Positions 6,118-7,026 of a stretch of DNA of 34,975 nucleotides are shown piece by piece (within the stretch, counting starts at the first letter, position 1; each line of letters begins with the position of its first letter). A program made the position numbers and the translations under genes. Below the pieces are notes generated by a model that was not told where the DNA came from, made no database searches, and saw only the letters and a list, made by a program, of their open reading frames with translations. The stretch spans positions 1-34,975 of the forward strand of contig JAQUYU010000006.1 of assembly GCA_028691695.1 (NCBI GenBank), in the 5' to 3' direction. The stretch is from Sphaerochaetaceae bacterium (GTDB taxonomy: Bacteria; Spirochaetota; Spirochaetia; Sphaerochaetales; Sphaerochaetaceae).

Positions 6118-6366
6118 TCACAGCTTCTTGATGACATCCTCTGAAAGACCGGTGAGTGCACTGATCTTCTCAATCGGGACATTCAAGCCCTGGAGACCTT
6201 TAGCCATTCTCATGCGCTCTTCCTGCCGGCCTTCGGCTCTGCCCTCGGCTCTGCCTTCGGCTCTGCCCTCGGCTCTGCCCTCGACTCTGCCCTCGGCTCT
6301 GCCCTCGACTCTGCCCTCGACTCTATTCTTATAGCCGACGGATCTGATTTTCTCTTCCAGTATCAT
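6118..6366 (-). CDS. Candidate internally translated C-terminal small Rpn protein (82 aa, RpnS-like)
   Basis: In-frame ATG at 6366 (MILEEKIRSVGYKNRVEGR...) preceded by AGGAGG (6378-6373) with 6-nt spacing inside the long Rpn ORF. Confidence 0.55.
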   Translation of the reverse strand: MILEEKIRSVGYKNRVEGRVEGRAEGRVEGRAEGRAEGRAEGRAEGRQEERMRMAKGLQGLNVPIEKISALTGLSEDVIKKL

Positions 6367-7026
6367 GTAACCCCTCCTGAATTCCTCATCCTTCTTGGCA
6401 TCTGATACAGCACGATCAATTTCTTTCACCAGTTCGCTTTTCTTCTCTTCCGGATAATGACCGGCATCATTCATGTACTCCAGAAGCACTTTCAGTTTAT
6501 CCCCAATATCTCCGTTTTGTCCAGTTGTATTGAAGAACACCTGATTTGTGCCATCATCATACTTGACATCAGGAGATTCCGAACATGAATAATTGAAACT
6601 GTATTTGAAGCAGCCCTTACCGAAAGGATCGAACTTGCATATGAAAATCAGGTAGCTCTGCCTTAGGTTTCCAAAAGGCTCTCCGCGCCCAAGCTGGTTT
6701 GAATCCATGCTTGCCTGATACAGCCTTGCCCTCTTCAGAAGGAACGGTTGGGTTTCAGCTTGCATCTCAACATCGAAAATAGTATTGCCATCATCAAGGA
6801 AAACATCAAAGCGCACCCCACGACGGCCAAACGGCCTTCCGTATGACTTCTGAACCGTTGCATTGGCATAGCTGCGAATCTTGATCCTGTCGATCTTCAA
6901 TTCCGGAAGAAGGCACTGTATCATCTTGAAGCAGATATCCTCATCGCTCATAACATAGGAGAACATCAGATCATCGGTGACATCAAGATCAAGGAATGCA
7001 GATTCAATCGTTTCTTTTCTGTTCAA
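6118..7026 (-). CDS. Rpn-family recombination-promoting nuclease / putative transposase (PD-(D/E)XK), long form
   Basis: N-terminal DLMFSYVMSDEDICFKMIQCLLPEL and catalytic RFDVFLDDGNTIFDVEMQ; near-perfect SD AAAGGGGAGGTGATGA immediately precedes TTG (7026-7024), so TTG is the favoured start rather than the upstream ATG at 7053. Confidence 0.88.
   Translation of the reverse strand: MNRKETIESAFLDLDVTDDLMFSYVMSDEDICFKMIQCLLPELKIDRIKIRSYANATVQKSYGRPFGRRGVRFDVFLDDGNTIFDVEMQAETQPFLLKRARLYQASMDSNQLGRGEPFGNLRQSYLIFICKFDPFGKGCFKYSFNYSCSESPDVKYDDGTNQVFFNTTGQNGDIGDKLKVLLEYMNDAGHYPEEKKSELVKEIDRAVSDAKKDEEFRRGYMILEEKIRSVGYKNRVEGRVEGRAEGRVEGRAEGRAEGRAEGRAEGRQEERMRMAKGLQGLNVPIEKISALTGLSEDVIKKL
6231..6326 (-). 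repeat. 8 x 12-bp tandem repeat encoding (V/A)EGR
   Basis: Plus-strand units c(t/c)tcg(g/a)ctctgc repeated eight times in frame; protein VEGRVEGRAEGRVEGRAEGRAEGRAEGRAEGR. Confidence 0.95.

What the first reader, a model, noticed from the sequence alone, without database searches (positions are those of the whole stretch)
6118..6378. Gene-within-gene in the Rpn nuclease: strong internal Shine-Dalgarno upstream of a separately translatable 82-aa C-terminal protein
Seen directly: inside the Rpn ORF, in frame, the minus strand reads ...TTC AGGAGG GGTTAC ATG ATA CTG GAA GAG (AGGAGG at 6378-6373, ATG at 6366). This is a better SD than many genes in the window possess. It would initiate MILEEKIRSVGYKNR-(V/A EGR)x8-QEERMRMAKGLQGLNVPIEKISALTGLSEDVIKKL. 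Established knowledge: in E. coli, Rpn proteins have been reported as phage-defence toxins whose activity is blocked by a small C-terminal form (RpnS) translated from within the same gene. The layout here is the same, in what looks like a spirochaete. Inference: the locus encodes a self-contained toxin (RpnL, PD-(D/E)XK) and antitoxin (RpnS).
Basis: partly seen in the sequence, partly recalled or inferred. Interest (0 to 1): 0.9.

Follow-up and report, generated by a model that had tools for sequence, protein, structure and literature searches.

The report
Nuclease gene with built-in antitoxin
A nuclease gene in a gut spirochaete carries inside it a second, well-marked start that should make a short tail protein able to hold the nuclease in check; this arrangement is already known from E. 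coli, and comparison with dozens of relatives shows that the internal start is kept by selection.

Summary
On the minus strand AGGAGG (6378-6373), spacer GGTTAC and ATG (6366) lie in frame inside an Rpn-family nuclease gene and would start an 82-residue C-terminal protein. As one DNA pattern it is not above chance in the window (3 found, 3.2 expected), so I tested it across relatives. In 78 non-redundant homologues (median 34% identity) with Met at that column, GGAGG lies upstream of the Met codon in 62, against 8 of 590 other in-frame Met codons. The Arg four codons upstream uses AGG in 49 of 53 cases, against 19% elsewhere and 12-15% at other conserved Arg columns. GGAGG is also kept in a second codon phase, where Trp-Arg is replaced by Met/Leu-Glu. 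This is selection on the nucleotides, as expected for a real internal start. Layout, tail motif, repeat position and D...ExQ active site match the RpnL/RpnS toxin-antitoxin system of E. coli (Zhong 2023, PMC10327210), which also reports RpnS from C. difficile. So this is a new member of a known kind. New here are the family-wide evidence, the ssb-rpn pair between trx and a kinase gene, and toxin-less C-terminal copies. Toxicity and neutralisation were not tested.

The parts
6118..7026 (-). rpnL: full-length Rpn-family PD-(D/E)XK nuclease, 302 aa from TTG 7026 (alternative ATG 7053, 311 aa)
   Evidence: TIGR01784 E=5e-29, PF12784 E=7e-10; R72, D74, E87, Q89 invariant in 33 homologues
7027..7041 (-). 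Shine-Dalgarno region of rpnL (AGGGGAGGTGATGAT) directly before TTG 7026
   Evidence: read directly; choice of TTG over ATG 7053 is inference
6373..6378 (-). internal Shine-Dalgarno AGGAGG of rpnS, also encoding Arg217-Arg218
6118..6366 (-). rpnS: 82-aa C-terminal protein from ATG 6366, predicted antitoxin
   Evidence: internal start conserved at nucleotide level; tail resembles RpnA tail and PDB 7TH0, weakly; AF2 model has helix 3-58 then two short helices
6229..6324 (-). eight 12-bp repeats coding [V/A]EGR, a lengthened helix shared by RpnL and RpnS
   Evidence: TRF 8.0 copies, 92% matches
7090..7584 (-). ssb (single-strand binding protein), 63 nt upstream of the rpnL start; neighbour, not claimed as part of the system
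   Evidence: PF00436 E=6e-26

Best explanation
The locus is an RpnL/RpnS toxin-antitoxin gene-within-a-gene. One gene makes two proteins: RpnL (302 aa, a PD-(D/E)XK DNA nuclease starting at TTG 7026) and RpnS (82 aa, starting at the internal ATG 6366 with its own Shine-Dalgarno). RpnS is the repeat helix plus a small helical tail. It pairs with the same tail of RpnL and keeps the nuclease inactive. When RpnS is displaced, for example in phage infection, RpnL would cut DNA. Shown here: the sequence features, family membership and selection on the internal start across the family. Inferred from the E. coli work: translation in this organism, toxicity, neutralisation and phage defence.
For: Internal SD/ATG read directly. 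In 78 homologues below 70% identity: GGAGG at -18..-4 of the conserved Met in 62/78 vs 8/590 other in-frame Met; mean duplex energy -9.1 vs -5.3 kcal/mol for synonymous recodings (Wilcoxon p=1e-14) and -1.9 for other ATGs; Arg at M-4 is AGG in 92% vs 19% elsewhere (Fisher p=5e-29), and 12-15% at three other conserved Arg columns. GGAGG sits in two main codon phases (43 Trp-Arg, 13 Met/Leu/Trp-Glu), so the bases are kept while residues change. The same-genus relative G001 keeps TTC AGGAGT TTT TAC ATG, and the paralogue (L004) and C-terminal-only copy (L005) in this genome have AAGGAGG-N5-ATG. E. coli rpnA has AAGGAGAGTTTAATG at its proven internal start and a matching tail (PMC10327210). Repeats start 15 residues after the Met, within the published 8-20.
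Against: No expression data. The lone AGGAGG-ATG pattern is at chance level in the window. 16 of the 78 homologues lack an exact GGAGG, and some distant relatives lack the Met at that column (94 of 118 have it). Predicted structures gave no confident match to solved folds. No internal promoter stands out above chance. PADLOC does not list the protein.
Confidence: 0.82

Rival explanations
1. The internal start is used, but the short protein is a structural subunit or activator of the nuclease rather than an inhibitor, like Cas11d made from within cas10d.
For: The conservation data show a start, not what the product does. Small subunits made from internal starts are known (cited in PMC10327210).
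Against: In the E. coli Rpn pairs tested the short form blocked its cognate long form (PMC10327210), and this locus shares their anatomy.
Confidence: 0.1
2. The SD-like stretch is a by-product of the conserved protein motif (WRxxYM / FRRGYM) and purine-rich coding, and no second protein is made.
For: Trp-Arg can be written TGG AGG, and even synonymous recodings give a moderate mean energy of -5.3 kcal/mol; for the window alone 5% of recodings do as well.
Against: AGG in 92% against 12-19% elsewhere, and GGAGG kept in another codon phase with different residues.
Confidence: 0.05
3. A decayed or inactive copy that keeps the reading frame by chance, since rpn genes decay readily in this genus.
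For: G001 holds at least four broken copies, and L005 in this genome has lost the nuclease domain.
Against: The window copy is open over 302 codons and keeps the invariant residues R72, D74, E87, Q89.
Confidence: 0.05

Closest known systems
RpnA L/S and the other Rpn L/S pairs of E. coli (Zhong et al. 2023, PMC10327210; PDB 7TH0 for RpnA-S)
   Same: Internal SD+ATG in frame, C-terminal small protein, ExQ nuclease motif, tail motif TGLSE, four-residue repeats beginning 8-20 residues after the internal Met
   Different: The window protein is of the PF12784 branch, and its N-terminal domain has no significant pairwise match to RpnA (BLASTP finds only the tail, E=1e-4). It has eight [V/A]EGR repeats. 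RpnL probably starts at TTG.
C. difficile rpn gene tested in the same paper
   Same: RpnS expressed from an internal RBS and start when cloned in E. coli, lost on mutation
   Different: Sequence not compared here
Stand-alone RpnS genes (ypaA/rpnE-S of E. coli)
   Same: L005 in this genome is a C-terminal-only copy with its own SD and ATG
   Different: L005 belongs to the C8 paralogue's lineage, not to the window gene, and whether it is functional is unknown

Membership tests
Rpn family (COG5464 / TIGR01784) | Match to the curated family model above cut-off | tested here: met
   TIGR01784 101.9 bits vs cut-off 52.1, residues 17-301; PF12784 39.5 vs 27.4
Rpn family (COG5464 / TIGR01784) | PD-(D/E)XK-type catalytic residues (D...ExQ) | tested here: met
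   R72, D74, E87 and Q89 invariant over 33 homologues
RpnL/RpnS intragenic toxin-antitoxin | Internal in-frame RBS and start giving the C-terminal tail, under selection | tested here: met
RpnL/RpnS intragenic toxin-antitoxin | Four-residue repeats 8-20 residues after the internal Met | tested here: met
   eight repeats starting after residue 15 of the short protein
RpnL/RpnS intragenic toxin-antitoxin | Three-helix RpnS fold | tested here: inconclusive
   Single-sequence AF2 model has one long and two short helices; sequence match to 7TH0 only E=0.19; fold search found nothing significant
RpnL/RpnS intragenic toxin-antitoxin | RpnL toxic; RpnS binds and blocks it | not testable with these tools
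   needs expression and cleavage assays
RpnL/RpnS intragenic toxin-antitoxin | Phage defence | not testable with these tools
   needs plaque assays; no PADLOC model matched

The most novel reading that the evidence does not exclude
The internal antitoxin start is a near-universal, nucleotide-encoded feature of the whole PF12784 (PDDEXK_2) branch across Clostridia, lactobacilli, spirochaetes, Synergistaceae, Chloroflexi and others. After the nuclease domain decays, the tail with its Shine-Dalgarno is kept as a free-standing antitoxin that protects against incoming or resident rpn genes.
Probability: 0.3. Interest if true: 0.55.

Novelty: new member of a known kind. Interest (0 to 1): 0.4.

Why it matters
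It gives comparative evidence, which I did not find in the main text of the one paper on this system, that the internal start is selected at the nucleotide level in the large PF12784 branch of Rpn nucleases. If that holds, many genes annotated only as 'putative transposase' are two-protein toxin-antitoxin units. It also supplies a simple rule (GGAGG, 5-9 nt, ATG, shortly before the four-residue repeats) for annotating RpnS in other genomes.

Tried and rejected
Chance test on the lone pattern: not significant, so not used as evidence. Fold searches with the full-length and short models: nothing significant, best McrBC at E=0.13. Internal promoter scan: one weak site at 6523-6494, total at chance level. 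dN/dS of the C-terminal-only copy L005 against L004: synonymous sites saturated, no conclusion. Relatives without Met at the column: best nearby SD-ATG is stronger than synonymous nulls on average (-8.8 vs -5.8, p=3e-4, 19 sequences), but several single cases are not. FliH and Yae1 hits of the short protein come from the low-complexity repeat and are below cut-off. A hit of the profile to PDB 8vd6 'CAP REPEAT' (E=4.5e-5, summed over its repeats) is a short match in a repeat protein.

Full report
Observation. The host gene is a member of the Rpn nuclease family (TIGR01784 E=5e-29, PF12784 E=7e-10). Eight 12-bp units code for [V/A]EGR. The long protein most likely starts at TTG 7026 behind AGGGGAGGTGAT; the longer ATG 7053 reading would translate that Shine-Dalgarno (inference). 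A TTG start for the long form and an ATG behind AGGAGG for the short one would favour an excess of the short form (inference).

Is it more than chance? The single pattern is not: AGGAGG-N4-9-ATG occurs three times in the window and 3.2 are expected. The right test is across relatives. I aligned 33 homologues, where Met221 is at least 90% conserved in an alignment with 32% mean column identity. I fetched DNA of relatives from named genomes, viral contigs and kin genomes, and mapped the column of Met221 with a profile. Of 118 distinct sequences, 94 have Met there. Among 78 of these below 70% identity to each other (median 34%), GGAGG lies 4-18 bases upstream of that Met in 62, against 8 of 590 other in-frame Met codons in the same genes. 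Duplex energy with the 16S tail averages -9.1 kcal/mol, against -5.3 for synonymous recodings using each gene's own codon usage (p=1e-14) and -1.9 for other Met codons. The Arg four codons upstream is AGG in 49 of 53, against 19% at other Arg codons and 12-15% at three other conserved Arg columns. In 43 genes GGAGG is written across Trp-Arg (TGG AGG); in 13 it is written in the next phase across Met/Leu/Trp-Glu (ATG GAG GTG and the like), with 8 rather than 9 bases to the ATG. So the bases are held while residues and reading phase change. That is hard to explain by protein constraint. In relatives without Met at the column, an SD-ATG pair is often shifted by one or more codons.

Limits of this test. 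Sequences are related, so the p-values overstate independence. The two codon phases and the saturation of other synonymous sites are what make shared descent an unlikely cause. The retrieval pattern lies in the nuclease domain and does not select for the internal start.

Nearest relatives. In this genome a paralogue on contig C8 (L004) has AAGGAGG-ACACA-ATG. A third copy on C105 (L005) has lost the nuclease domain but keeps AAGGAGG-ACAGT-ATG and an open tail. In the same-genus genome G001 there are at least four decayed copies. One of them (C106) has lost parts of the nuclease domain and keeps TTC AGGAGT TTT TAC ATG and an open tail of 73 residues. Whether such tails are still selected could not be decided.

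Setting. The order is trx, ssb, rpn, amino-acid-kinase-family gene (UMP-kinase-like by my reading), HPr, PTS enzyme I. In G001 trx and the kinase gene are adjacent with about 180 bases between them and neither ssb nor rpn there, while ssb lies elsewhere. So ssb and rpn were gained or moved together at this place, or lost there in G001. G009, of the same family as the window's genome, shares hit coordinates with the genome of 'Sphaerochaeta sp. Phil3', so the window is most likely from the Sphaerochaetaceae.

Mechanism. Zhong et al. 2023 (PMC10327210) showed for E. coli that Rpn genes make a long toxic nuclease and a short C-terminal form from an internal start. The short form binds the long one and blocks DNA cleavage, the four-residue repeats set the specificity of pairing, and one plasmid system limits T-even phages. 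They also showed internal expression for a C. difficile gene and noted repeats in Leptospira. I compared E. coli rpnA directly: its internal start is AAGGAGAGTTTAATG and its tail ends in ...RFTGLSEEEL, against ...ALTGLSEDVI here. The N-terminal halves belong to different branches and do not align significantly. I therefore take the window gene to be an RpnL/RpnS pair. Shown: sequence anatomy, family membership and selection on the internal start. Inferred: translation here, toxicity, neutralisation, defence.

Novelty. The kind of system is published, including its wide distribution, so this is a new member of a known kind. What I add is a quantitative, family-wide test that the internal start is under nucleotide-level selection in the PF12784 branch, and examples of toxin-less copies that keep it. 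I found no paper in the held library that reports this test, but the supplement of the 2023 paper could not be read.

Noticed in passing
27280-28386 (+): Patatin-like phospholipase (PF01734 E=1e-22) that also matches PADLOC phospholipase effector models (E=9e-52), with no obvious cyclase next to it; the following 131-aa ORF (28392-28787) has no Pfam hit.
   Followed up: partly
6057-8052: ssb and rpn sit between trx and a kinase gene that are adjacent in the same-genus genome G001, so both genes were gained or moved together there, or lost in G001.
   Followed up: partly
L005 (own genome, contig C105): A C-terminal-only Rpn piece of 116 aa with its own AAGGAGG-N5-ATG and no nuclease domain: a candidate free-standing antitoxin.
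   Followed up: partly
L170, L172, L186, L187 (G001): At least four decaying rpn copies in the same-genus genome, three of them sharing about 81-88% identical DNA, which suggests recent multiplication and loss.
   Followed up: partly
L115, L116; phage record MT835536.1 35505-36173: Relatives of the nuclease are encoded on two IMG/VR viral contigs and on one human faecal phage record.
   Followed up: no
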